From contig NC_087080.1 of the NCBI RefSeq assembly GCF_026151205.1, positions 15,261,337 through 15,325,336 of the forward strand: DNA of 64,000 bases. The letters are read 5' to 3'. The notes under the pieces are model-generated. The model was given only the letters and a program-made list of their open reading frames with translations, was not told the DNA's origin and ran no database searches. The translations under genes were made by a program, and so were the position numbers. Positions 21,586 through 61,835 of this stretch are shown here, one piece after another (the first letter of the stretch is position 1; every line of letters begins with the position of its first letter). The stretch comes from Bolinopsis microptera. Lineage: Eukaryota > Ctenophora > Tentaculata > Lobata > Bolinopsidae.

Positions 21586-21908
21586 GTCATGTCACAGGTG
21601 TAACAGTGTGCTTGAAGCCTTATGACGTTTTATATGACTTCTTCTACTCGTTTTAACAGCTGTGTAAGTATACGGAGCCTAGAATTGAGTAGCGAATCCA
21701 GCAACCATGATCAAGGTACAGTAGGCGTGTTCCAAGAGTGCTTACTATAGTCATATCATAATATGTTGCTAATCTTTATTTCTTGAGGATTCTTAGTTGT
21801 GACCTTCTCTTGCATTTTCATGGTTATGTATCAGAACTGTACCAAATGTAGACGGTGCTTAATCTATATGATAACAAGTTCTTGCAGATCCCTCTCTCAC
21901 CATCTGCA

Positions 21909-22132
21909 ATACTTACGTAGTAGTTGCAATACTTATGTATAGTAGCAATACTTACGTAGTAGTTGCAATACTTACGTATTAGTTGCAATACTTACGTAGT
22001 AGTTGCAATACTTACGTATTAGTTGCAATACTTACGTAGTAATTGCAATACTTACGTAGTAGTTGCAATACTTACGTAGTAGTTGCAATACTTACGTAGT
22101 AGTTGCAATACTTACGTATAGTAGTAGTTGCA
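21909..22132 (-). repeat. 20-bp minisatellite of minus-strand donor motifs, 11 copies
   Basis: TTGCAATACTTACGTAGTAG is repeated with small changes. Read on the minus strand each unit is TTGCAACTACTAC|GTAAGTA, carrying a near-perfect 5' splice site; one of the eleven is altered to ACATAAGT. The first copy coincides with the end of candidate exon 22116-22180, so the unit equals the exon end plus donor. Confidence 0.85.
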
Positions 22133-26820: not shown

Positions 26821-27165
26821 ATGACGATGGAAACAACCAACCAGCGCGTGAACCCACCATTATTCAACGTGAAGAGTGAAGAGTCTAATCAATTAACCCT
26901 ATTAGATTGCTGCCGATATCCATTACACAGCTGTTACATAGCTGTTACATACCTGTTGCATCCATGTTACATAACCGCCGGTATCAGTTTTAACAGCGCG
27001 GCTCAGACCACTGCACATAAAAGGCAGTGTGGACCGTGTGGTGCAGCTCTGTGCCACTTGTGCCATTCTGTACTACTCTGTGCCACTTGTGCCATTCTGT
27101 ACTACTCTGTGTCACTTGATCCTCCGGTGTTGTGGTTTTGTCCAACCAGCTTGCTTTTACCATAG
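26821..27165 (+). CDS. hypothetical ORF, 114 codons
   Basis: This is open from ATG to TAG. The second half is Cys-rich (KRQCGPCGAALCHLC, then a 29-bp tandem duplication encoding GTGCCACTTGTGCC strings), which may be repeat-driven. The first half (NPPLFNVKSEESNQLTLLD) looks protein-like but was not recognised. It could be transposon debris. Confidence 0.2.
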   Translation: MTMETTNQRVNPPLFNVKSEESNQLTLLDCCRYPLHSCYIAVTYLLHPCYITAGISFNSAAQTTAHKRQCGPCGAALCHLCHSVLLCATCAILYYSVSLDPPVLWFCPTSLLLP

Positions 27166-39300: not shown

Positions 39301-42300
39301 ATCTAGATTTCACCATGATCATTTACCATAAAAAACAAACATTAAATTAACAATAAATCCACAGAAGTTAAAATCCACAGAAGTTAAAATCTAGGAATTA
39401 TTGGAAGTATTGTCCCAGGTGCTGTTAGACTGCGTATACGAGTTAGCCATGTTGTTAGTTATATGGCTCATGGGGGTGTTCATCTTCGGGACAATCATGT
39501 TCTACATTGAGCACGAGCAAAAAGACACCAAGTTCGAATCAATCATGCATTCCTGTTGGTGGAGCGTCGTTTCCATGTCAACGGTAGGTTTATGTGTTGT
39601 TTTGAAAAGCAATTATTCGTTGCACGTGCGATGATTTTACTATTCGTCCTTTTTTTTACTACACGGATTTTTGGTGCACTATTATACGTATTGTGCACGG
39701 ATTGGTGCACTTCCCTATAATCGTTAAGCCGTTTGAACTATTATATGTTGAACTATGTTGTTCTCTTGAAGAACGTTGCGTTATTCTTGACTGGTGCTGA
39801 ATTTATTTATCCGAGGCCAGAGCAGAGAGTCTAAATTTTGAGTGCAAGGAGCAATCCTTACAACTAATTTCATGCACAGTGCACACCAGTGGCGTAACGT
39901 TGCCTGTTGGCGCCCCCTGCCGAAAAGGCGCCCTCCTGTTGGCGCCCCCTCCCCTTTTGGTGCCCCTCCCTAAAATTGAACAAATTAGGTGATTTTAGAG
40001 GATACGCCGGTAAAATCTCTAAAAAAGTGTGTATCTAGAGCAAAACGCGCAGTTTTGCTAGTACTTTAGTTAAGTTTTCGAAATTGTCCCACATTCAAAC
40101 GACGATTTGGCGCCCCCCTAAGACGGCGCCCCCCTGCACAGCGGGGTCAGCAGAGCCCTTCGTTACGCCACTGGTGCACACCACGACAACATCATCATAC
40201 GTGAACAATAACCTCGTGAATTACAAGCGCACGTGCATAGTACGTCTAGCGCACGTGCAAACGTCTAGCGAGTTCTGTTCAGACAACGTGAGGTCGGTGA
40301 GAAGAAACGAAAATATAAGTATGATAATCAACGTGATTAAGTTGAACAACGCCTGCTTTGCATCATAATAGAGGACATCCAAAGCATCCGGATATTATAA
40401 ATAGAAAACATGTTGAGTTAGCTGGAGTGAGTTAGCTGGAGTGAGTTAGCTGGACCAGTGACAGTCACCGAAGTGTGGGTGAAGTGAGGTGGTCACTGTG
40501 ATTTGTGAAGTATGAAAATATGACAGTTAGATGTGAGAGATGTATTAGCCGATCCAATTGTGAGGAAGCTAGTTGTGTCCAGTGTAACATATCAAACCGT
40601 GAACCCAGTAGTGAGGAATTGCTAGTTGTGTCCGATGTTACATACCAAACCGTGAACCCAGTAGTGAGGAAGTGTCCGATGTTACATACCAAACCGTGAA
40701 CCCAGTAGTGAGGAAGCTAGTTGTGTCCAGTGTAACATATCAAACCGTGAACCCAGTAGTGAGGAAGTGTCCGATGTTACATACCAAACCGTGAACCCAG
40801 TAGTGAGGAAGTGTCCGATGTTACATACCAAACCGTGAACCCAGTAGTGAGGAAGTGTCCAGTGTAACATACCAAACCGTGAACCCAGTAGTGAGGAAGT
40901 GTCCAGTGTAACATACCAAACCGTGAACCCAGTAGTGAGGAAGTGTCCGATGTTACATACCAAACCGTGAACCCAGTAGTGAGATAGCTAGTTGTGTCCA
41001 GTGTAACATACCAAACCGTGAACCCAGTAGTGAGGAAGTGTCCGACGTTACATACCAAACCGTGAACCCAGTAGTGAGGAAGCTAATTGTGTCCGACGTT
41101 ACATATCAGAGTGGAAAGCCCAGTGTTACATACCAAACCGTGCACCCATTAGGTTGGCTATGGGGACATGTATCCCGAGACAGCACTGGGGAAAGTTGTC
41201 ACAAGTGTCTTGGTATTCTGTTCAATGGTGTTCCTCGCCCTGCCCATGACTATCATTGTATCAAAATTCAACAAAGCGTTTGAAACCCTCAAGAAGCCCA
41301 GAAGGAAAACACCTAAGGAGGACAAGTAAACGGTACGAAGATCAGAAATTTGCTGACCTTAAAGTTAAACCGTGACCTTGTTCGTGACCTTGCTGTAACT
41401 GTGCCATATATATCCTGCTTAAATATCTTTCCGAATGCGCCTGATATCTGTTGCACTTCATTTATTATCATTTTCCTAACTAAACAATTCGTTTTGATCG
41501 CACGAAAGATGCTAAAATTAGGGAGTCTAGTATTGCGAGTAAAATGTACGTCGTACATATTACCCCATAGCCCCTATAATTTAATATTTGTAGTCAGTAA
41601 AACCCCGATTTAACCCTGATTTGGGGAAAGCAAACAGCCACGGTAAATTGGGTTTCGCGGTAAATCAGATTTTTGATTGTTCATAGTTTTTTTTTTTTTT
41701 TTGTTACGGCACCCACTGACTACCGTCACAAGGTATGAGGTAGCGACCCTCCATGCGGAGTATCCTACTGGGGTCCACCTGGTTAGCATTTATACCCCAT
41801 TCCCCTGGGCTTCCAGATGATAATGTCTTGATAGACAACAGCCAAGTCGGGGTTGCCGCTCCTTTGATCACTATCAGATGATAGCAATCAGGCGAGCGAC
41901 TAACATAGTCCCTAGGGATGATTGGATTAACTTGATTGTTCATAGTGTATGAAATGCTCTCAATTAGGAGAAGAAAACAATTGTGGTAATTTGGGGTTTG
42001 GGGTAAATCGGGCGCAGTAAGTTTAGGTTTTACTGACAAAACTTAAAGTTAATATATAATATATCTATTAAGCTACAAACATATATTATATCACCGAAGT
42101 TCTCTCCATGTAGCTTTGCTTTAATGTTCATGTTTACATGTGATTTTGCTTGACATTCATGTATCACCTGCGAGTGTTGCTGTTTCAAACATAATTAAGG
42201 CCTGTCGGTCAATGATAATAACTTGACTGTTGAATATTTAACAGTAAACTTACTATTGAAGTATTGATCACTTTGAAATTACAGTGCATGGAGTGTTGAT

Positions 42301-47919: not shown

Positions 47920-50900
47920 ATGAACGAAGGAATCCCTGTCAGAACATTTAAACAGTCAATCAACTCTGAGGGGAGCGAGTATGAGGTAGGTCAACAGTGA
48001 ACAGAGTAATGAGAAGTTTCACTCCGCATACGTTCTCTCAGACTTGCAGTAACAAAATAATCCCTGTTATTCCAGTCGGAATCAGATTCTCCTTCATCAT
48101 TTTACATCCATACCATTATCAGAATTATACACAAAAGCTTTGTAAGTATCGGTGCTCAACGTAGGTTATTCAAACTCCCTCAATTCAAGCTTAACCAACC
48201 CTTACCATCCGCAGGAGGATGTACCGGAGATAGGGATGGTACCTGCTTTCATCATGTCCATAAACTTCATCATCGGAGCCGGGTTCTTCTCCATGCCCTA
48301 CGTGTTCTACCACGGGGGTATAATGTGGGGAGCTATGACTCTAATTTTAGTAACATTGACCCTTGTTATTACTAGTAATTGGACCCTGGAAACTTGCTCC
48401 AGAGCACAGGTAACTGCTATTTTTATAAACTTTTCTTATTTATTTGATATTCCAGCAACGTACAAAACATATTATGTACATTGTACAGTCAAAATTTTTC
48501 GAAGTTTTCGAACTGAGGATGTTTCGAATAAAAATTCGATCAGCGAGAATTTATCATTATTATAATTACATCCTCGTGATGGCTAGAAATTTATATGTAT
48601 CTATTAATGCTTTTCAAACAAAGTTACAACGAATTCTTCATGTAGTGCATCCTGGGTTTGGACAGGATATGTCCGTTTAAAATATTTCCATCACGTTACA
48701 TTACATAATTCTCAATAAATGTAATAGCTTTGTAGTGTTGTTATTAGTTTAAAACTGTGTTTTAAAACTGTGTTTTAACCACTGTGTTTTAACCAGGCTT
48801 TAGACACAGTGATCAGAGAATCGGATATTCCAGATCTCAACTTCCATGACGTCTCCATCGTTGGTAGAAGGTACGTCCTAACGTCTTAACAACTATTTAA
48901 TAACTAATCAGTACTCAGTAGGTCAAAAGTTTTAATTATAACTAATCCGTAATCAGTAGGTCAAATGATGGATAGTTGATGCCCCTACTTTCAAGTTTCA
49001 TAGTTCGAAATTTTTATACGGTCCAGTCTTTTAAAATGTTTTTTTTTGTAGGTTTACTCTGGCCATCAACTCAAACTGCCTATCGCGCGATATAACGAAT
49101 TCTATTTTCTTATTTAATTTAATTAATTGATTTATTCTGCTGAGTATATAAGTTTTATCTTAATAGTGGTGTTACTTAAACTTAGATTTTTATTATTCCT
49201 ACAGGAATAACACCTTTGGTAGTGTCAACTCAAGGACCAGACTGTTAAAGCCTAAATATGAGATAACAGCTGCCAGGAAGTTTGAGTTTACAGAGCTGAT
49301 GGAGGTATTCTTTGGGAAACCCGGCCGGATTATTACTGCTTCTTTGATTATTGTGAGTTTTCTGTATCGGTTGGATTATTACTGCTTCTTTGATTATTGT
49401 GAGTTTTCTGTATCGGTTGGAATATTACTGCTTCTTTGATTATTGTGAGTTTTCTGTATCGGTTGGAATATTACTGCTTCTTTGATTATTGTGAGTTTTC
49501 TGTATCGGTTGGGTTATCACTGCTTCTTTGATTATTGTAAGTTTTCTGTATCGGTTGGAATATTACTGCTTCTTTGATTATTGTGAGTTTTCTGTATCGG
49601 TTGGAATATTACTGCTTCTTTGATTATTGTGAGTTTTCTGTATCGGTTGGATTATTACTGCTTCTTTGATTATTGTGAGTTTTCTGTATCGGTTGGAATA
49701 TTACTGCTTCTTTGATTATTGTGAGTTTTCTGTATCGGTTGGAATATTACTGCTTCTTTGATTATTGTGAGTTTTCTGTATCGGTTGGAATATTACTGCT
49801 TCTTTGATTATTGTGAGTTTTCTGTATCGGTTGGAATATTACTGCTTCTTTGATTATTGTGAGTTTTCTGTATCGGTTGGAATATTACTGCTTCTTTGAT
49901 TATTGTAAGTTTTCTGTATCGGTTGGAATATTACTGCTTCTTTGATTATTGTGAGTTTTCTGTATCGGTTGGAATATTACTGCTTCTTTGATTATTGTGA
50001 GTTTTCTGTATCGGTTGGATTATTACTGCTTCTTTGATTATTGTGAGTTTTCTGTATCGGTTGGAATATTACTGCTTCTTTGATTATTGTGAGTTTTCTG
50101 TATCGGTTGGAATATTACTGCTTCTTTGATTATTGTGAGTTTTCTGTATCGGTTGGAATATTACTGCTTCTTTGATTATTGTAAGTTTTCTGTATCGGTT
50201 GGAATATTACTGCTTCTTTGATTATTGTAAGTTTTCTGTATCGGTTGGATTATTACTGCTTCTTTGATTATTGTGAGTTTTCTGTATCGGTTGGATTATT
50301 ACTGCTTCTTTGATTATTGTGAGTTTTCTGTATCGGTTGGAATATTACTGCTTCTTTGATTATTGTGAGTTTTCTGTATCGGTTGGAATATTACTGCTTC
50401 TTTGATTATTGTGAGTTTTCTGTATCGGTTGGAATATTACTGCTTCTTTGATTATTGTAAGTTTTCTGTATCGGTTGGAATATTACTGCTTCTTTGATTA
50501 TTGTAAGTTTTCTGTATCGGTTGGATTATTACTGCTTCTTTGATTATTGTGAGTTTTCTGTATCGGTTGGAATATTACTGCTTCTTTGATTATTGTGAGT
50601 TTTCTGTATCGGTTGGAATATTACTGCTTCTTTGATTATTGTAAGTTTTCAGTATCGGTTGGAATATTACTGCTTCTTTGATTATTGTGAGTTTTCTGTA
50701 TCGGTTGGAATATTACTGCTTCTTTGATTATTGTGAGTTTTCTGTATCGGTTGGAATATTACTGCTTCTTTGATTATTGTGAGTTTTCTGTATCGGTTGG
50801 ATTATTACTGCTTCTTTGATTATTGTGAGTTTTCTGTATCGGTTGGAATATTACTGCTTCTTTGATTATTGTGAGTTTTCTGTATCGGTTGGATTATCAC

Positions 50901-53900
50901 TGCTTCTTTGATTATTGTGAGTTTTCTGTATCGGTTGGAATATTACTGCTTCTTTGATTATTGTAAGTTTTCTGTATCGGTTGGATTATTACTGCTTCTT
51001 TGATTATTGTGAGTTTTCTGTATCGGTTGGATTATTACTGCTTCTTTGATTATTGTGAGTTTTCTGTATCGGTTGGATTATTACTGCTTCTTTGATTATT
51101 GTGAGTTTTCTGTATCGGTTGGATTATTACTGCTTCTTTGATTATTGTGAGTTTTCTGTATCGGTTGGATTATTACTGCTTCTTTGATTATTGTGAGTTT
51201 TCTGTATCGGTTGGATTATTACTGCTTCTTTGATTATTGTGAGTTTTCTGTATCGGTTGGATTATTACTGCTTCTTTGATTATTGTGAGTTTTCTGTATC
51301 GGTTGGATTATTACTGCTTCTTTGATTATTGTGAGTTTTCTGTATCGGTTGGATTATTACTGCTTCTTTGATTATTGTGAGTTTTCTGTATCGGTTGGAA
51401 TATTACTGCTTCTTTGATTATTGTGAGTTTTCTGTATCGGTTGGAATATTACTGCTTCTTTGATTATTGTGAGTTTTCTGTATCGGTTGGATTATTACTG
51501 CTTCTTTGATTATTGTGAGTTTTCTGTATCGGTTGGATTATTACTGCTTCTTTGATTATTGTGAGTTTTCTGTATCGGTTGGAATATTACTGCTTCTTTG
51601 ATTATTGTGAGTTTTCTGTATCGGTTGGATTATTACTGCTTCTTTGATTATTGTGAGTTTTCTGTATCGGTTGAGTTATTACTGCTTCTTTGATTATTGT
51701 GAGTTTTCTGTATCGGTTGAGTTAAGTTAGAAAGTGGACGAATCTCATTTGGAGCTCTGTTCCGCTGAGTAATTTTAATAAATTCACGTTTTTTCTGTAT
51801 CATGACGATTATTAATCGCAACTAAATGATTCATCAATAAATTATTGGTTTTACATAGTTAATTGTCTAAAACTAATTTTTCTTTAGGTATACCTGCTGG
51901 TTACGCTATGTGCATACGCTACAATATTCGCTTCTACCTGGTCTCTGGTAATACCGTACAATACCTCCATCCACTCTCTCGGCCTGTGTAATCTATCTGA
52001 CTACGAGGGGCTGCTACCTGGGGGAGACTGTCTCAACTCTTACAGGCAATTAAAACTAATTAATTAATTAAGTTAATTAATTAAATAAAGTAACTACTAA
52101 TTTACTAACTGACAGGCAAGTAATTACTTTCCATTTAAGTTATGACAGATCTTCTGAATCGCAGAGGGCTAAAGTGAATGAAGTACAACTACATGGTGAT
52201 AAGTTGTGCATGTTTTCTTTCTATTTCTGTATCAGACTACCAGAAATACTGCTGACACGCTTTGTCTCCTCAGATTTTCAGTCTTGATATTTGCGTGCAT
52301 AGTGATACCAATATCAGCCATGGACGTGAGCACTATGAAGCCCTTCCAGATAGCTCTTAGCTTTATCATGCAGGTAAAAAGTAAAATCTTCTTTAGAAAT
52401 AAGATTGATAGATCATAATAAAGGGTTCGCTGTACTTCATTGCACTTCTTTAGTGTTTAACAGCTTATATAAATATTATTATTATATTCGAATTAGAGAA
52501 TTAGAGGTTGGAGCTGTATATATCCTTGGAGAACCCGGTGGATGTCCTTGCTGTACGGCAGTGTTAAACAAGGAACTGAAACCGAGGGGTTCCGTTCAGG
52601 CCCTTCACACTTTGTTTCTGTCTAGTTCTTATGTACCGTCACAATAGTGACTTTAATATATTAAATTTTTTCAGTTCACAATAGGTGTAGGTATAATACA
52701 CTGTATATACGGGCTCGCTACGGGTAACATTGCCGACGGTGAGCATCAACCCCATCCTACACGCTTTTTCGCCTTTGATTTCACAAGTAAGATTTATTTT
52801 TTTCAATGTTTTAAAGTCGACGCTTGATAATATATATTATACATAAGTTTAAATAAATATCTTTGGTGTTCTACTATAAAATCTAACTCGATGAATATCC
52901 AATATTTAGCTTTTGCACCAAAACCTCGCACAATTACAACTATAGGGTGTACCACAGAAAGTGTGATTTTTTGAGAAATGATACAAAATATCATGAAGGA
53001 GCAGTTGCTAAAAACTCTTCATCACATTGTGTCAATATATTGTGTCGAAAAACTATTAAAGTGGAAGAAATTCACACTTTGTGGTACACCCTGTATACCC
53101 ACTACCCAGGTTTCGTGAACATGGTACCGATTGTGGTATACTCCCAAGTTCTACACGAGGGTATCCCCATGATAGCGCAACCTGCCCGGGACAAGAAAAA
53201 TCTACACAAGCTGTTCGCTGGTGCCCTGTCTTTCGCTTGTAAGTCTTAACTTTACTTGTCAGTTTGTTCGCTGGTGCCCTGTCTTTCGCTTGTAAGTCTT
53301 AACTTTACTTGTTTGCATGTTGTATCGCATTATTTCACGGGACCTGTGACTTTAATGATATCAGTGACTGATATATATTTGGCGTATGTTCTAAAATTAG
53401 ACCAAATTTCCTGATATCTCCTCAAGTATCACATTTGAGTTCAACGGAAAAAATAAAGTGAAAATTACATTACTCGTTATCTTATCTCTGCTATCATGAC
53501 AGGCTTTATGTAATTTATTGCTTTAAACTTCAAGCAGACTGTCATCACGCTTCACCTTACCAAGGGCTTTACTTTCATTTGAAATTCGGAAAAAGAAAAG
53601 AGTTCTCTTTAGATATTTGAAGTTCCATTTCTAATGATACTGGGTGCGCCATCGTGGATTTTCTAAACCTTTATCTGCTATGATGAAGCCTTGTGCCGTT
53701 GTTATTTTTTAAAATTTATTAAGATAAGACTAAAAAAGTACTAAAGTTCGTGTTGAAGTGCCATGCATCGCATTCCACGCCCTCGGCCTCATGTGAATAT
53801 TAAATAATCAACAAGGCCTTTTATCCTGTCGATTACGTGACACTGTCGCAAATAGAATTTAAGTCACACAAGCTGTTTCCAGTGCAAGTCAGTGACGATA

Positions 53901-56900
53901 TAACGTTATTATTGAGCCGGGACAAAATGCTGCCTTTTAGTTCGATACAATTTCGAATCGACCAGATATCTTGGTTAAGGATTTCCTTATTCTAAATCAT
54001 GCAGACTGTTGAATGCTCTACTTCTCGTCGCCAGGAACGCGCATTCAAAATCCTTGGTAGATGGCTGTTTTTCTGTTTTACACAGGAGAGCAATGGAACC
54101 GTCTTATGATACGATTTTACAACGGTTTTCGGACGACCACGCGCCAAACTCCTAACTAAGCCGTTTTGATTAAGCAACCACTAACCTCCACAATCAAGAT
54201 TTCTAGAGTAGACCCCGTGCGTTTCAGTCACTCTGTCCCCGTATCTCTTCCTTTTTAGGTAGCACTTTTGACCATAATTCTGCATTAAACCCACGGACTT
54301 ACAGTCGTCAGTTTCGCTGCATTTTGACAAGCAGTCCATCATGGAAGGTGAATTCGCTATCCAGGATATATCGTTTCCATAGAAATCAGTATCCTTCTTC
54401 GTGCATATATCTTGTGTAAAATATAAGTTATTTATCCAATTTTGAGCTATGATTGAACGAAATACCAATAAATTCTAATTTACATCAAATTAATATATTT
54501 TTTCCTTACCGTAAAACGGATCATTCGAAGATGGTGGCGGCATAAACACCAGCATGATGAATACATGACAAATTTTCTCCATCGTCTTGGGACTTGGTTG
54601 CTATTTGTAAGGAAGATAAATTAGAGTATTGTCTCTAAAAGCCATAAAAAGCCACTACAGAGAAATCTTGCATAGCTGAACGTATAAATTATATGATGGT
54701 TCACCATGACATTTCCGATTTTGATGTCAAAGTAAGATCTTCTTTAACAAGATCTTCTTGTTTAAGCCTGCATAACCAATTTAAACAAATGAGCAAGACT
54801 GTGTACTATAATAGGGGGAAGCCAAGGGGTATTTTGGGGTATTATGGGGATTGGGGAATGGCTTAATGGATTTTGGAAATCCCCCATAATAAAGTCCCCA
54901 TAATACCCCAAAAGTACCCAAAATTATTGTAAATATTCATCGTGGCCAACTGTTTATGTTTTTCACGAACCAGTTTCAGTCCATCGTTCAGTGCATGTTT
55001 TAGTTGAAATTTAAGTCTGCCTAGATTATAAATTAGAGCAAAAAAACATATTTTTTAGACTCAACAGCCAAATTTCTGAACTGTTCCTCTGCTCATGCTT
55101 ATGACTTATAGTTTTTAAATTATTATATTCCCCTTTATATCCACCAGCGGGCTATATTTTGTCTTCTGACCTCTCGCAGCCCGATGTAACAAGACACAGT
55201 GCGCGTCCAGCCCGCTTAAAATACAGCACGCGAGCAGATGATACTTAAAGTGACAAGTAACAATACAGCCCGGAGCACTTTCACTTTCAAACAAATTTTT
55301 GGGGCCTAAACTATTAAACTTTAACTATAACAAGACACGTACACCATATTTATGTCACTAACACTACATCTTAATGGTTCCCACGGCTCAAGGAATGCAC
55401 TACCTATATCACTTATCGGCCTCAGTCCCTATACCACGCAGTGCAATATGATTGGCTGACATTGAACACGTGACGTGTTACCATGGTTGCAACAATTAGT
55501 GGCGACTTTAAGTCTAGAGTTGATGTTTATACAGTATACACCATACACGCCCCATTGTTTATTTCAACTGATTTCCATTTCCATAATTGCTCAAGCTATT
55601 TCGAGTAATAATTCTTGAAATTTTAGGCCGGAATTTTACGTGTAATTCTATTGTGTTCCCGAAAGAAATTTTGCCCTGTTTTTTGTTTTGAAACTATACC
55701 GTCTACTACTAATATTGATGTGATGAATTTGATCTTTTACTCAACGTAAAATATATATAATATATATTCAATGTCCCTTCGTGCTTCGTTATCTTGAGCT
55801 CTCTTGGTAACTGCAGATGGCATTCAGTTTATAGTTACACAGTTGTTAAAGTTATGCCGAGCACTCTTTTTGATAGTTTAAGCTGAATTTATTGTTTGAC
55901 CGGCCCTACACACTGTGTACTGATTAACTCTCATTGTACATCTGACGTGTTGTCATGGTAACAGGAATTCTGTGTTACTCGTAGTATGGATTGACGGAGA
56001 TACACAATTTTTAATCTATGTTAATGATTAACATCCCGTTGACTGTTCATCAATTTGGTTGGTGTGTAATACCATTATAGTACGTGGGATTTCAATTCTT
56101 CTATTGTGTTATATAATCAGTAATGTTGCCCTGTTCTGCATCTTACACCAAAGGCTAAAGCATGATTTTCTATTAAATTTGCAGCTTTAGTTCGAAATCT
56201 TTTACTTCTATTTGCTATGATTGTTGAAAACTGTAAAGCGCCCGCTCATGGATATACACGATATCATTCCTCGCCATGAGGGCGGAACTATCGTATAGCA
56301 CTCGGGCCCGTTGGGCCCTCCGTGCTATACGAAAATATCTCCGCCTCGGGCTAGCGCCCTCGTGGAGATATAAAATATTGCACGCGCACGCGCGTGCAAT
56401 ATTTAGTACCGCCCTCAAGGCTGCGGTGATATCTATATATACTCATGGATCAGGTAACATTCCCGTCTAAAACATTTTAGCCCCGGGGCCGGGTTAAAGA
56501 ATTGGAATACCTCAAGGAACCGATCGGAAACAAATTTGGCTTGGGTAGAAATTGTAACTATGGAGTATGATGCAGTTTTGCGCAATCGACCACGCTTTTT
56601 TTGGCGCTTTTGCGACTTCGAAATAAAACTTTGGCCTCTGATTAAAGTCAAAAGCCACACTTGGGCATAAAGATATCCAGCATTATCACATTTAGGGGTG
56701 TACAGCATAATTAGGACATTTAGGGGTGTACAGCATAATTAGGACATTAGTTATGAGGCTGCACCTATTTGCACTCTCGTGATAATATTAATAGCAATTA
56801 CAGCACTTTAAATCAAAATAACTCGGTTTCTGATTGGAGTTAAGAGCTTAAATTGGGCAGTTAAATGATCATACTGAGTTTCAACGGGGTAAAGGCATCA

Positions 56901-59900
56901 GGCTGTCGAATTAATAGACCAAAAGCTTGTAAATAGACCAAAAGCTTGCAAATTTCATCATCTAGAAAAGCCAGTTTTTGTCAAGGCAACAGCTCCAAGT
57001 TGGCGTTTTCAATATTGCAACGCGAGTAATCTCGCTGCTAGGCCTAGGGTAGGCGAGGCTATGACATTATTGTGCTAATCCCCTGGGGCTCTTAAAAGGA
57101 TAGGGGGGGGGGGCTCATGTTTTGTGTCTGTTTTTGTACGTGCGGTACCCTATATTTTCAAGACGGACAAAAAATACGGCGGACAAAAATGGACAAAAAA
57201 TGTTATGGAAATAACATTTCGATGCTTCTTTTCTACACCGATTAGACTCATGCTTATCAGTTATCAGTACTAGCAGGAACCCGTCTAACTCTAAAGTGGT
57301 GTTCAGCAGATTAAGAGCAAATGGGAGGTGAATGACAGAGGAACCTATATCGATAGAACTAGAAGTAGAACAGGCAACTATGTAAAGAAGAGTTGACAGA
57401 TTTCGTTTTTTTGTGTGGACGAAATATCTCAAAGCTAGACAGTTTTCTGGCAGTCCGATCACAAAGCAGGCAAAGAACCCGAACGCTAGTCGCTAGCAAG
57501 CCATCATAAATTCTGTACTGAGTAGTTTCCAGGATCGAAGTCTCATTCATCCTAAAACTTATAATTAGCGTAGCTTGAATCAATATATGGAAAGTTTCTT
57601 GGACTACTTTATCACAAACGTATGTTAAGACCTTTAAGTACTGAATAAAACCGATAATTATTTAAAGCTGTGGCTCACTGGTAACTTTTCTGTATTTATA
57701 ACCTAAGACACCGGTATAAACGGTATAGTAATAAAATAATTAATGAGGGAACAACTCATAAGCCGGGGCAGGGTGCGCTAATAGACCGCGTTGTTAAGAT
57801 CTGTAATGTACGTGATTAAAGGCACGTGATTACAGTGATAACTGTTGATTGACCCTTTCAGATCGTAGAGGTCTGCAACACATGCTCGCTTTGCATATGC
57901 ATTGTTTTTATCTCGCTATGACTATAATAATAAAGTAATAAGAAATTTAAACTATTAAAGTCACTAGCAGGAACCCGTCTACCCTAAAGTGGTGTCAAGA
58001 CTCGAGAGAATAAAATAATTATTACCTATTTAATTCGCGTTTTTGACACCACTTGGGAGTCCAAATTTTGGGCACTAAAATTATTATTCCTTGGCCAATT
58101 TTTAATTTTTTCATGCTGATTTGAAGGCCATTAAGGCATTTGACCCAGTCAAAAAAGTTTCAGTTGTATATCTTTTACGGTTTTTGCGGAAAGTTGCGTT
58201 AAAGTTGATGCCGTGGTGTCAGTAAAATGGCACGGATATATACATACATATATATCGTCTCGCTTTATATATAGTAAGATGTCCGTAGCCCGCTCGTCGC
58301 ACGTGTATTGATTATGAGTAATTAAACCGATCACAAAGCAGGCAAAGAACCTGAACGCCAGCAAGCCATCAGAATTTCTGTACTGAGTAGTTTTAGGTGC
58401 ATTTTTACCGTTTAATGCTGTTTCCCTATAGGTAAGTGACAGTATTGTTTGTAAAATGAAGGATTATATGATTCATTAAAATTTGAAGGGAGTAACCGAG
58501 GATCTTATATAGCTGGTGTAGCGGCTAGCGATAACTTGCTATAACTTGCGATAACATTTGGCAATTGACTTATTCGACTGAAAACTGTGAAGGGTTAGGA
58601 GATTATTGTATGCTGTAAAGTAGTGTATTTATAACGTTATAACCATGTGTACCCACTAGGAGCGTTCCACATGCTCGGGAAGTAGCGCACTTGGATGATG
58701 CTACCATGACGTTGGTCATTGGTGGCCCTGTTAACGAGCGTTGCTAAGCACCGCGGACTTGTTAACGAGCGTTGCCAAGCACCGCATGCGCCTCAGATAA
58801 CAATTTGTAGTGCAGACCATTGTTTGTAGTGCAGACCATTGTAGAATGTAGATCTTATGTATAAGATCATTACAGAGGCTCTTATATGATTATGCTCTTA
58901 TCATAATCACGTGAACTGCAACTCACCATCAGCAAAAAGTATAGATCACTACGATATTGTACGTGATGACGCGTCATAGCAATACAAACAATCCAATGTC
59001 ACTAATCCAATGTCAGTTGAGCTATCTCGGGAAACTAGAAGAATTCACTAGTTAAGTATGACGTTACAGTTAGTCCAAATAGAAGAGACAAATAAAACCA
59101 CAAAAACCACAAAGATCATGCTTTGATGGCTGCTACTATAGTATTTCAGGTGCGTTCTAAGACAAGTGTGCAGCTACTGTAGTATTTCAGGTGCGTTCTA
59201 AGACAAGTGTGCTACTGTACTATTTCAGGTACGGTCTATCTGACCTTTTCAATCCTGACAGCTCTGAGATTCCGGGAGGATGTGGCAGCCACTGCTTCTC
59301 TTAACTGGGCAAGTTTTGAAAATTCACAATAATTATTAATTGTGATGGATGGTTATAATAAACAATCAAATGGTCTTTCTGTCCTTGAACACATTTAAGA
59401 GTAATCAGTAAATAGACTCATCGACGGATGGTTAACTAATAGTAATGATTATTTCAGAACGTCACCAGACAACCTGGAAATCCGATGCTGATCCGTATGA
59501 TCAGCTATCTTATCATGTTGACACCGAGTGTAGTTGTGTGCAGCGCCTACCCTCTGTGTGTCATCACCATGGTCGCCAACCTTGGTCTTCTTATCACCGG
59601 TTAGTAATATCTTGGATACCAAATTCCAACCTTCCCCTTATTACCTATATATCACCCTTGGAGCATATCACCCTTGGAGCCAGCCTCTTTCCCCACAATC
59701 ATTTATTTATTGCCCTGGCCCTGTTGCTATCAAACTATAGTGCTAATAACAGCATAACGAACTAATTTTCCAGGACGCGATTTGAGCACGGACCCGAAGT
59801 ACAAGAATAAACTGAAGCTTGTCGGTTGTTTCATTTCTATAATTCCTATCAGTGGTGCTCTTTTCATCTCAAATCTGAAGACTCTCTCAAAATATGCAGG

Positions 59901-61835
59901 TATCTAAATCTAATGAACTGTTGAATAATGGATTGTGAAATATTTTTAAATGGCAGCCATGTCCACATTCATCAGCAAAATTCCAAATCTCCAATGAAGG
60001 GTTTTACGGGTTTAAGTGAGTCTTCCGAACTCAAACACTAAAATAGTTAATCTACAGGTCTGATAGCATTCCTGTTAATAGGGTTCATCCCGATCATGCT
60101 TCAAGTTCAGAGCAGAAGGAAGTGCAGGAGAGTGTTCGGTAGAGTAGACGCGTGGATTGAGAAGAGCATTTCTGCTAGTTTGTCTTTCCGGGAAGAGGAC
60201 CGGATGCAGCTGCTGGACAAATACGCTAAGGTATTTGCAATTCTTTATTTAACTTTTATCACTTCTCATAAATGACATTTGCAATTAAACGGATGTCGAG
60301 CTTGGTGAAGCGATGGAGTATAGACATACGGGTAAATGCCTCACAGAATGGCTAGCCTCACAGAATGGCCAAATTTGTAAATGTTTTTGTAACTAATTTT
60401 TTATAAAAGACTGGTAGGTTTTGTGGATACCATATGAAACAAAAGTCTTCTGGCAACACTTCCTGTGGTGAAATCATTAACTAGGACCACATTTTCTGGC
60501 ATAAATATGACTGTTTATGTAGAAATTTTGAGCACTGAAAAATTTGTTTTCAAATTTTTGAACTAAGTTTACATTTTGGTGAGAACTTCTGGCACCAGTA
60601 TGACAGAAGATGTTCAAAGAATAGTATTCATCAAACAAAACGAACATTGTTCAATATAGGAAGAAAAAAATGCTAAAATGGCTACACGCCTCACAAAATG
60701 GCCAAAATATGCCTCACAAAATTTGTTTTCAAATTTTTGAACTAAGTTTGCATTTTGGTGAGAACTTCTGGCACCAGTATGACAGAAGATGTTTAAAGAA
60801 TAGTATTCATCAAACAAAACGAACATTGTTCAATTTAGGAAGAAACAAAATGTTAAAATGGCTAAACGCCTCACAAAATGGCCAAAATATGCCTCACAAA
60901 ATGGCCAAAATTTAAAACTCCTTTTATTCAATGAAACCATAAGTCTAAAGTATTCACAAGCTATTTATCATACAATAACACCCCAGATGGAGTGTTTTTA
61001 CAGCCGAATGAAGGTTATAAATCATGAAATCAGGGAATATGAACAACGCCACACAAAATGGCCATTTTTGGTGTAGGAAATTATGCCCTTTTTATTCAGT
61101 TCTAAGAAATTTCACCTATATAGGGGTGTTAACAAGGCATATTAATACCAGCAGCATGCCTGAAACAAGAGCCAAAGGTTTTAGAAAAATAAAATTTTCT
61201 CGTTTTCTTTTTTTTTTGCCATTTTGTCAGGCATTTTTTCTTTTTTGTGAAATAATTTTTCACAGCTCAGTTTTTTCGTGAGTTTTAGGTTATTACCCCA
61301 TTCCTTAATAGGTTTTCTAAGAACGTGTGGTGATAGAAATTTAAAAAGTATCTCCATCAACAAAATTATAGAAATTCAGATTTAGCCATTCTGTGAGGCA
61401 TGTTTTTTTGGAGGAAGATTTTCCGGCCAATTTTTCTCAAAGAAAAAATGGTTATGAGATTAAATGAACCCCCGGGAAGAAAAATATGAGTGTCAACTTA
61501 GCTTCTTATGAGATAAAAACTAGAATAAAGTGTGTTTTGTGACTTTGAGAGACCTTCCTTTTTTTTGGCCATTCTGTGAGGCAAATACCCGTAGTCTAAT
61601 TAATCTGTGTTAGTGTTACTATATTTTCTCGACCAATAATAGCAGTAACATGTATGCTATAATACTGATACAGTGTACGATTATTGAAAACCCCCCTCAG
61701 TTGCGTGACGTCATGACAATGACACCGTACTACAGTTCCTGGTGGAGCCGGACCTGGGTGGTTGCCGTGGTTACCGTCATTTGTACTCTCCTCTTCATTC
61801 TGGGAATCATATCTGCGTTCTCTGTTGCGCACTAA
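47920..61835 (+). CDS. AAAP-family amino acid transporter (Aa_trans)
   Basis: This is a multi-pass carrier of the amino acid/auxin permease family (SLC32/36/38- or TMEM104-like; substrate not predictable here). Exons: 47920-47985, 48076-48141, 48215-48409, 48797-48870, 49205-49352, 51888-52045, 52274-52373, 52675-52786, 53110-53238, 59229-59308, 59458-59599, 59774-59899, 60058-60230 and 61701-61835. Phases agree and give 567 residues. Two introns use GC donors (52046 GCAATT, 59309 GCAAGT). A hydrophilic N-terminus (~1-50) precedes TM1, FIIGAGFFSMPYVFYHGG, the family signature. About ten more hydrophobic segments follow, including PGRIITASLIIVYLLV (split by the repeat-filled intron 5), FACIVIPISAMDV, VPIVVYSQVLHEG and a C-terminal TWVVAVVTVICTLLFILG. 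A loop with Cys residues (GLCNLSDYEG...GGDC) lies after TM3. Intron 9 (6 kb) contains a PAN gene on the other strand. Confidence 0.93.
49327..51723 (+). repeat. 46-bp minisatellite built from exon 5 end plus 5' splice site, ~52 copies
   Basis: The unit is GGATTATTACTGCTTCTTTG ATTATT|GTGAGTTTTCTGTATCGGTT. The first copy is coding (residues ...RIITASLII) and ends at the real donor of exon 5; the rest fill most of intron 5. Variants are A/T (GGAATATT), GTAAGT in place of GTGAGT in several copies, and a few single changes. Read-through of the array meets a TGA in the second unit, and because 46 is not a multiple of three most downstream donors would shift the frame. Confidence 0.95.
52943..53093. 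mobile_element. mariner-type MITE, 151 bp
   Basis: The left end AGGGTGTACCACA and the right end TTTGTGGTACACCCT are inverted repeats of about 20 bp, flanked by TA. It ends only 16 bases before the start of transporter exon 9, so it supplies the branch-point region of that intron. A truncated relative is at 3296-3405. Confidence 0.85.
53212..53314 (+). repeat. 53-bp duplication of transporter exon 9 donor
   Basis: TGTTCGCTGGTGCCCTGTCT through TTCGCTT|GTAAGTCTTAAC occurs twice, 53 bp apart and virtually identical. The first copy is the end of exon 9 with the true donor (53239); the second donor is at 53292. Use of the second would run into a TAA (53247) in the retained sequence. Confidence 0.92.
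53320..54180. other. transporter intron 9, 5' part
   Basis: No exon was recognised on the plus strand. A 61-codon minus-strand frame (53992-54177) could only matter if the PAN gene continues past 54181, which I could not show. Confidence 0.4.
54181..54582 (-). CDS. small secreted PAN/apple-domain protein
   Basis: Two exons on the minus strand, 54582-54510 and 54410-54181, joined across a 99-base GT-AG intron, encode about 100 residues. The N-terminus MEKICHVFIMLVFMPPP looks like a short signal peptide. The second exon encodes one PAN/apple domain: CTKKDTDFYGNDI, then DCLSKC, DDCKSV, QKCYLK and a final LDC. The six Cys can make the three disulfides of an apple fold. PAN domains usually bind proteins or carbohydrates outside the cell. 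The frame stops at TAG 54181, but GGAG|GTTAGT there could also be a donor leading to a longer protein. The gene lies wholly inside intron 9 of the transporter. Confidence 0.75.
54826..54919. mobile_element. small fold-back element
   Basis: Arms of 25 bp (TTTTGGGGTATTATGGGGA and inverted TCCCCATAATACCCCAAAA) match at 23 positions around a 44-base centre that itself repeats AATCCCCCATAAT-like words. No clear target duplication was seen. Confidence 0.7.
54920..56238. other. transporter intron 9, middle part
   Basis: No exon, array or mobile-element ends were recognised. Confidence 0.4.
56239..56432. repeat. chain of four to five consecutive hairpins
   Basis: In order: CGCCCGCTCATGG/CCATGAGGGCGG (56239-56286); CGTATAGCAC/GTGCTATACG with a GGGCCC loop (56292-56331); ATATCTCC/GGAGATAT (56335-56371); AAATATTGCACGCG/CGCGTGCAATATTT (56373-56404); and ACCGC/GCGGT (about 56408-56427). 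The GC content is far above the surroundings, and a GCCCTC-type word recurs in most loops or stems. This may be a mobile fold-back element or a structured RNA. Confidence 0.75.
56433..57260. other. intron sequence, small duplications
   Basis: A direct duplication of ACATTTAGGGGTGTACAGCA lies at about 56689-56744, with smaller repeats near 56930. No gene was recognised. Confidence 0.45.
57268..58400. repeat. duplicated segments in intron 9
   Basis: Two words occur twice in the same order: TAGCAGGAACCCGTCTA..., at about 57268 and 57964, and CCGATCACAAAGCAGGCAAA... through TCTGTACTGAGTAGTTT, at about 57456-57530 and 58328-58393. The second copy lacks ten bases. This suggests an old segmental duplication of a few hundred bases. 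The minus-strand frames across them share LLA...CLLC/FACFVIG-type readings but no known domain. Confidence 0.75.
59131..59230 (+). repeat. three copies of the transporter exon 10 acceptor
   Basis: GCTACTRTAGTATTTCAG|GTGCGTTCTAAGAC occurs twice (AG ends at 59149 and 59190) upstream of the real TACTATTTCAG|GTACGGTCTA (59228). The upstream copies are diverged images of the intron end plus the first bases of exon 10. Either decoy AG would put a TAA within three codons. Confidence 0.85.
60329..61591. mobile_element. 1.26 kb non-autonomous TIR element, TA duplication
   Basis: The ends CGGGTAAATGCCTCACAGAA and inverted TTCTGTGAGGCAAATACCCG are flanked by TA. The internal sequence repeats the terminal word many times (GCCTCACAAAATGGCC) and contains a 178-bp tandem duplication (60542-60719 and 60720-60900). 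No transposase is present. It fills most of the last transporter intron and looks like a Tc1/mariner-type non-autonomous element. Confidence 0.85.

What the first reader, a model, noticed from the sequence alone, without database searches (positions are those of the whole stretch)
49327..51723. A 5' splice site amplified about 52 times inside a transporter gene
The 46-bp unit equals the last ~26 bases of exon 5 plus the first 20 bases of intron 5, so every copy carries exon end plus a good donor (GTGAGT or the stronger GTAAGT). Productive splicing seems to need the first, exon-proximal copy: read-through hits a TGA in the second unit and 46 is not divisible by three. The cell must either ignore about 51 equivalent donors or use them to lower expression. 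I know of no described gene where a donor junction itself has become a satellite of this size.
Basis: partly seen in the sequence, partly recalled or inferred. Interest (0 to 1): 0.88.

Follow-up and report, generated by a model that had tools for sequence, protein, structure and literature searches.

The report
Splice donor amplified into a minisatellite
In an unnamed animal genome, the end of one exon and the start of the next intron of a transporter gene have been copied head to tail 52 times, so the gene carries 52 near-identical splice donors; two human genes are known to be built this way, and other junctions in this genome show the same thing, which makes it a natural test of how cells choose a splice site.

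Summary
In detail: 52 complete 46-bp units at 49327-51718, each the last 26 nt of a coding exon plus 20 nt of intron, each with GTGAGT (44) or GTAAGT (8). The host is a 13-exon amino-acid-transporter gene with an open frame of 545 aa. Of the 52 donors only the exon-proximal one gives that frame. Without 51 units the intron would be 189 bp.

The claim that no such gene is described fails: human IFI6 has a minisatellite supplying several donors; human CBS has a 31-bp repeat (24 nt exon + 7 nt intron, 16-21 copies) reported to lower activity.

New: the pattern recurs in this genome. The same gene has a duplicated donor at exon 8 and a three-copy acceptor array at exon 9; in each, only the exon-proximal copy is productive. 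In 24 spaced 10-kb samples I found three more donor cases, among them an EDC4 array of 69 copies (9 in an inverted near-copy), and one acceptor array. The rate fits roughly random seeding in a minisatellite-rich genome (about 2% of sites), although three hits in one gene is more than expected (P 0.014, after the fact). No RNA evidence was available.

The parts
49327..51718 (+). Donor-junction minisatellite: 52 units of 46 bp, each 26 nt exon end + GTGAGT/GTAAGT + 14 nt of intron
49205..49352 (+). Coding exon 4 of the transporter gene; its last 26 nt are the exon part of unit 1
49353..49358 (+). Exon-proximal donor GTGAGT, the only one of 52 giving the full frame
49353..51887 (+). Host intron, 2535 bp; 189 bp without 51 units
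51888..52045 (+). Coding exon 5 (acceptor tttctttag|GTATAC)
53212..53312 (+). Second junction duplication of the same gene: 53 bp x 1.9, 100%; unit = last 27 nt of exon 8 + GTAAGT + following intron
59131..59238 (+). Third junction array of the same gene: 41 bp x 2.8, 86%, spanning the acceptor (TATTTCAG|GTRCG) and first bases of exon 9
47920..47985 (+). Coding exon 1 (first ATG found)
48215..48409 (+). Coding exon 2
48797..48870 (+). Coding exon 3
52274..52373 (+). Coding exon 6
52675..52786 (+). Coding exon 7
53110..53238 (+). Coding exon 8
59229..59308 (+). Coding exon 9 (GC-type donor TGG|GCAAGT)
59458..59599 (+). Coding exon 10
59774..59899 (+). Coding exon 11
60058..60230 (+). Coding exon 12
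61701..61835 (+). Coding exon 13 with stop

Best explanation
A short tandem duplication that happened to cover a 5' splice junction was expanded by unequal exchange or slippage into a 52-copy minisatellite. All copies but the exon-proximal one became intron. The working donor is most likely copy 1, because exon definition ties it to the 148-nt exon and because every other choice breaks the reading frame; the other copies are decoys whose accidental use yields frameshifted or stopped messages, probably removed by nonsense-mediated decay. The same process has hit other junctions, donors and acceptors, in this minisatellite-rich genome, apparently with little regard to gene structure. Shown from sequence: unit composition, array size, frame consequences, recurrence, and the copy-number difference between two EDC4 copies. 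Inferred: which donor is used, decay of mis-spliced messages, the expansion mechanism.
For: 52 of 52 units keep GTRAGT. All 52 donors tested: only donor 1 gives the full frame. The intron without 51 units is 189 bp; the six other introns between exons 1 and 8 are 228-387 bp. The exon 8 donor duplication and the exon 9 acceptor array follow the same rule: the second donor and both upstream acceptors lead to a stop at codon 331. Elsewhere: L028 EDC4 donor array, 69 of 69 copies CAG|GTRAAT (EDC4_C E 8.1e-18), 9.0 copies in an inverted near-copy; L014, 12 copies; L021 old duplication (flanking exons WSC E 1.4e-05, below its cut-off, and Sushi E 4.7e-06); L028 acceptor array 46 bp x 4. 157 arrays of period 15 or more in 304 kb, 11.5% of bases; summed periods give about 2.15% of unique sites seeded. 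Array units hold no more donor-like motifs than shuffled ones: 5 of 133 at 8 bits or more, 6.7 expected. In human CBS 844ins68, a duplicated intron 7/exon 8 junction, the more distal site is strongly favoured and the upstream duplicated piece removed (PMC2630376), which I read as use of the copy next to the intact exon.
Against: No transcript was seen. The exon 4 donor is weak (ATT|GTGAGT, 6.2 bits; the seven other donors of exons 1-8 score 1.9-9.6 on a matrix typed from recall) and the same in 44 copies, so nothing in the hexamer favours copy 1. In IFI6 two downstream repeat units are used as donors (PMC4526556), so later copies can work. Three of 24 junctions of this gene lie in arrays, P 0.014 at the 2.15% rate (computed after the fact), and the two arrays of 2 kb or more with 95% identity or better in the sample are both at donors (n = 2, one being the given finding): both hint at more than random seeding.
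Confidence: 0.7

Rival explanations
1. The array is a dosage dial: decoy donors capture U1 and a share of transcripts is mis-spliced and destroyed, so copy number sets expression, as reported for the CBS repeat.
For: A review states that more 31-bp repeats at the CBS exon 13-intron 13 boundary lower CBS activity (PMC5188458 passage). 51 of 52 donors here are unproductive. Copy number can change greatly: 9 versus 69 in the two EDC4 copies.
Against: No expression or population data. In EDC4 the 30-bp unit is in frame and open for the first 25 copies, so wrong choices there are not automatically lost.
Confidence: 0.25
2. Splice donors are preferred seeds or preferred survivors of tandem amplification in this genome.
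For: Five donor cases (two in this gene, L028, L014, L021) against two clear and one possible acceptor case in 304 kb; both young arrays of 2 kb or more are at donors.
Against: About 2.15% of sites are seeded anyway; with a guessed 130-170 donors per 304 kb about 3-4 are expected. Three of the seven clear cases lie in the window that prompted the search. Not every flagged array was looked at, so all counts are lower bounds. Lowered from 0.15 after exon 9's acceptor array was found.
Confidence: 0.12
3. The gene is a pseudogene, so the array is free of consequence.
For: Two GC-type donors (exons 5 and 9) and no transcript evidence.
Against: 13 exons with matching phases, one stop, at the end; Aa_trans match over residues 28-454. 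Lowered from 0.08 because the missing exon 9 was found.
Confidence: 0.04
4. Assembly artefact.
For: Arrays can be mis-sized in assemblies; no reads could be seen.
Against: Units differ at six columns in a mixed order; the window lies at 15.26 Mb of contig C9, so the assembly is chromosome-scale; 2.4 kb is short for long reads; independent arrays exist.
Confidence: 0.04

Closest known systems
IFI6 (G1P3, 6-16) minisatellite, human (Turri et al. 1995; paper not held, title and citing sentence seen in PMC4526556)
   Same: A minisatellite in a gene whose repeat units serve as splice donors.
   Different: Use of two downstream units, giving three mRNA species, is reported there; here no RNA is known. 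Unit length and copy number of IFI6 were not seen in any call.
CBS 31-bp VNTR, human (PMC2630376, PMC5188458 passages)
   Same: Unit spans exon end and donor (24 + 7 nt); unit length not divisible by three; many copies.
   Different: 16-21 copies there, 52 here; polymorphic and tied to lower activity there, untested here.
Tandem repeats at exon-intron boundaries in human segmental duplications (PMC2812944 passages)
   Same: Minisatellites at boundaries, differing in copy number between close paralogs, as in the two EDC4 copies here.
   Different: Variable repeats there average 30 bp x 4 and can form new introns; here the intron already existed.
Intron gain by tandem duplication (PMC2891723 passages)
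   Same: Tandem duplication around splice motifs.
   Different: There a duplicated exonic proto-splice site makes an intron; here a real junction was duplicated and only lengthened its intron.

Membership tests
Donor-spanning minisatellite (IFI6/CBS type) | Repeat unit contains exon end plus 5' splice site | tested here: met
   26 nt exon + GTRAGT in 52 of 52 units
Donor-spanning minisatellite (IFI6/CBS type) | Head-to-tail array starting in a coding exon of an intact gene | tested here: met
Donor-spanning minisatellite (IFI6/CBS type) | More than one unit used as donor in transcripts | not testable with these tools
   no RNA data
Donor-spanning minisatellite (IFI6/CBS type) | Copy number varies | tested here: inconclusive
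   one place only for this array; for the EDC4 array 9 versus 69 copies in two copies of the gene
Intron gain by tandem duplication | Intron arises from the duplication itself | tested here: not met
   189 bp of non-array intron remain
Dispersed satellite DNA | Same unit in many places of the genome | tested here: not met
   one place only, (counts are lower bounds)

The most novel reading that the evidence does not exclude
In this genome splice junctions of many genes, donors and acceptors, are repeatedly turned into fast-changing minisatellites, donors into the longest ones, and their copy numbers act as heritable dials on splicing and expression.
Probability: 0.13. Interest if true: 0.85.

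Novelty: new member of a known kind. Interest (0 to 1): 0.5.

Why it matters
It offers 52 near-identical donors, all in cis and evenly spaced, in a natural gene: a direct test of whether splicing chooses by exon proximity, order of synthesis or donor strength. The same gene adds a duplicated donor and a tripled acceptor at the two ends of one intron. The EDC4 pair (9 versus 69 copies in two nearly identical copies) is a ready comparison. If such arrays are as frequent as the sample suggests, one species would hold many natural replicates of the CBS/IFI6 situation.

Tried and rejected
Rejected: a donor-motif excess in array units overall (5 of 133 at 8 bits or more against 6.7 expected from single-base shuffles; no clear excess at any threshold from 4 to 8 bits). 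Rejected: RNA structure hiding the later donors (exon end and first four units fold no better than shuffles, z +1.21). Not accepted as junction arrays: L018 3901-5048 (intronic, about 20 bp from an acceptor); L023 7861-8141 (142 bp x 2 with the highest donor score, 12.0 bits, but inside an open frame of the other strand that looks mobile, my reading); L019 6601, L010 two arrays, L023 3823 and L031 4603, no clear exon beside them; window 21905-22122 and 26923-26973, donor-like minus-strand units without a visible exon. Flagged by the screens but not looked at by hand: L024 874 and 9605, L017 8280, L018 6628, L022 4345, L026 397, L023 5562, window 30068, several in L032 and L033, among others.

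Weak control: the codon score used in the screen does not by itself tell exons from random DNA (exon 4 scores 2.6, the L014 exon 5.1, against 3.9 and 7.0 for the 90th and 95th percentile of random 90-mers; the transporter exons were in the training set).

Led nowhere: the genome-wide pattern count of paired donors and the family and protein searches of the own genome, never answered. Paper searches brought nothing used.
Full report
WHAT IS THERE. The array is real and as described: 52 full 46-bp units from 49327 to 51718. The first unit is the last 26 nt of a coding exon ending at 49352 plus 20 nt of intron. All 52 units keep a GTRAGT hexamer: 44 GTGAGT, 8 GTAAGT. Six of 46 columns vary, so the array is young or homogenised. 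The last unit (52) begins GAGTT like the unique intron just after the array (GAGTTAAG), whereas unit 1 begins GGATT like the exon. I read this as the trace of the first duplication, whose breakpoints share TTA; that is inference.

THE GENE. Thirteen exons (47920-61835) join with matching phases into 545 codons and one stop, at the end. Pfam Aa_trans matches residues 28-454 (32.0 bits, cut-off 25.6, E 7e-08); the first 327 residues alone score higher (46.9 bits, E 2e-12), and a join without exons 9 and 13 matched only profile positions 3-226. Resemblance to TMEM104 is my recollection, not a call. Of twelve donors ten are GT and two GC (exon 5, CAG|GCAATT; exon 9, TGG|GCAAGT). The intron holding the array is 2535 bp; 51 units account for 2346 bp, leaving 189 bp, against 228-387 bp for the six other introns between exons 1 and 8.

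CONSEQUENCES OF DONOR CHOICE. Only donor 1 of 52 gives the full frame (all 52 tested). Donor 2 adds 46 nt, shifts the frame and stops about nt 101 after the acceptor; donors 3 and later include a TGA at 49437-49439, in unit 3 (which printed 15 of 52 cases). The only AG in the reference unit lies inside the donor, so units offer little as acceptors. Folding of the exon end and first four units is unremarkable.

TWO MORE CASES IN THE SAME GENE. At 53212-53312 a 53-bp unit (1.9 copies, 100%) covers the last 27 nt of exon 8, its GTAAGT donor and following intron. At 59131-59238 a 41-bp unit (2.8 copies, 86%) covers the acceptor TATTTCAG and the first bases of exon 9. So one intron has a duplicated junction at each end. 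The second donor and both upstream acceptors lead to a stop at codon 331: as with the big array, only the exon-proximal copy is productive. Each stretch occurs at one place in the genome.

OTHER GENES OF THE SAME GENOME. I fetched 24 ten-kb stretches at fixed spacing (20, 4) and screened them and the window for arrays at donors or acceptors, checking a part of the candidates by hand. Outside the window: (1) L028, minus strand 7099-5002: 30-bp unit, 69 donor copies, 69 of 69 CAG|GTRAAT, in a gene whose exons match EDC4_C (E 8.1e-18). (2) L014 6322-7330: exon end and donor 12 times in about 1 kb, ten GTAAGG, one GTAAGT, one GTTAGT; this short exon has no Pfam match, so its reading is mine. (3) L021, minus strand, exon end 9066: 37 bp x 1.9, 85%; the exon before it resembles WSC (25.6 bits, below the cut-off of 27.8) and the next one Sushi (27.3 bits, cut-off 20.7). 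(4) An acceptor array, 46 bp x 4, in the same EDC4 gene. In the window a potassium-channel exon (starts 41153; Ion_trans_2 E 3.2e-07) follows a 44/95-bp array whose degraded last copy runs up to the acceptor; I count that as possible only.

COPY-NUMBER CHANGE. The EDC4 stretch has an inverted near-copy about 28 kb away on the same contig (98% over the 241-base query; pieces of 403-755 bases at 97-98.5% and one of 1591 at 93% with gaps). Its donor array has 9.0 identical copies against 69, its acceptor array 3.2 against 4.0. These may be paralogs or two haplotypes kept in one assembly; in either case the donor array changed size.

IS IT MORE THAN RANDOM SEEDING? Arrays of period 15 or more: 157 in 304 kb, covering 11.5%; summing their periods, about 2.15% of unique sites have been seeded. 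If a donor occurs every 1.8-2.3 kb (a guess), 3-4 seeded donors are expected in 304 kb; five were seen, two in the prompting window, with two clear acceptor cases, one in that window. So no targeting is needed. Hints against pure chance: three of the 24 junctions of this gene (P 0.014, chosen after the fact), and the only two arrays of 2 kb or more with 95% identity or better are both at donors.

WHAT IS KNOWN. IFI6: PMC4526556 (passages) says two downstream repeat units act as splice donors, giving three mRNA species, and cites Turri et al. [quoted passage not shown] that paper is not held. The same title stands in the reference lists of PMC2572611 and PMC3618361 (passages). CBS: PMC2630376 (passages) names the repeat c.1444_1467+7 with 16-21 copies; PMC5188458 (passages) states that more copies lower CBS activity; PMC1395315 (passages) lists it at exon 13-intron 13; the original paper is not held. 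PMC2812944 (passages and outline) reports human repeats at exon-intron boundaries. That no case with as many as 52 or 69 copies is in print I cannot claim: the listings of my searches showed none, and most subscription papers are not held.

VERDICT. A real and striking member of a known kind. The new elements are the copy numbers, the recurrence at donors and acceptors in several genes of one genome, three times in this one, and the 9-versus-69 pair.

Noticed in passing
L028 7099-5002 (minus): EDC4 gene with a 69-copy, 30-bp donor-junction array whose first 25 units are in frame and free of stops: use of a later donor there would add ten-residue repeats to the protein.
   Followed up: yes
L035 (C5:8035467-8035937, minus): Inverted near-copy of the EDC4 stretch with only 9 donor copies.
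   Followed up: yes
L028 3990-3807 (minus): Acceptor-junction array, 46 bp x 4, in the same EDC4 gene.
   Followed up: partly
L014 6322-7330: Irregular array with 12 copies of an exon end plus donor, with other short repeats mixed in.
   Followed up: partly
window 40575-41152: 44/95-bp array, degraded towards its end, running up to the acceptor of a potassium-channel exon.
   Followed up: partly
L018 5048-3901 (minus): 52-bp x 22 intronic array in a gene that reads like a kinase (my reading), units with a pyrimidine tract plus CAG, ending about 20 bp before the real acceptor: many acceptor-like decoys.
   Followed up: no
window 52045 and 59308: Two likely GC-type donors (CAG|GCAATT, TGG|GCAAGT) in the transporter gene.
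   Followed up: partly
window 21905-22122 and 26923-26973: Minus-strand arrays with donor-like units (GTAAGT, CAGGTATGT) but no visible exon.
   Followed up: partly
L030 and L021: Kilobase-long CT-rich arrays with period 16 (TCCTCCTCCTCCTCAG) on two contigs.
   Followed up: no
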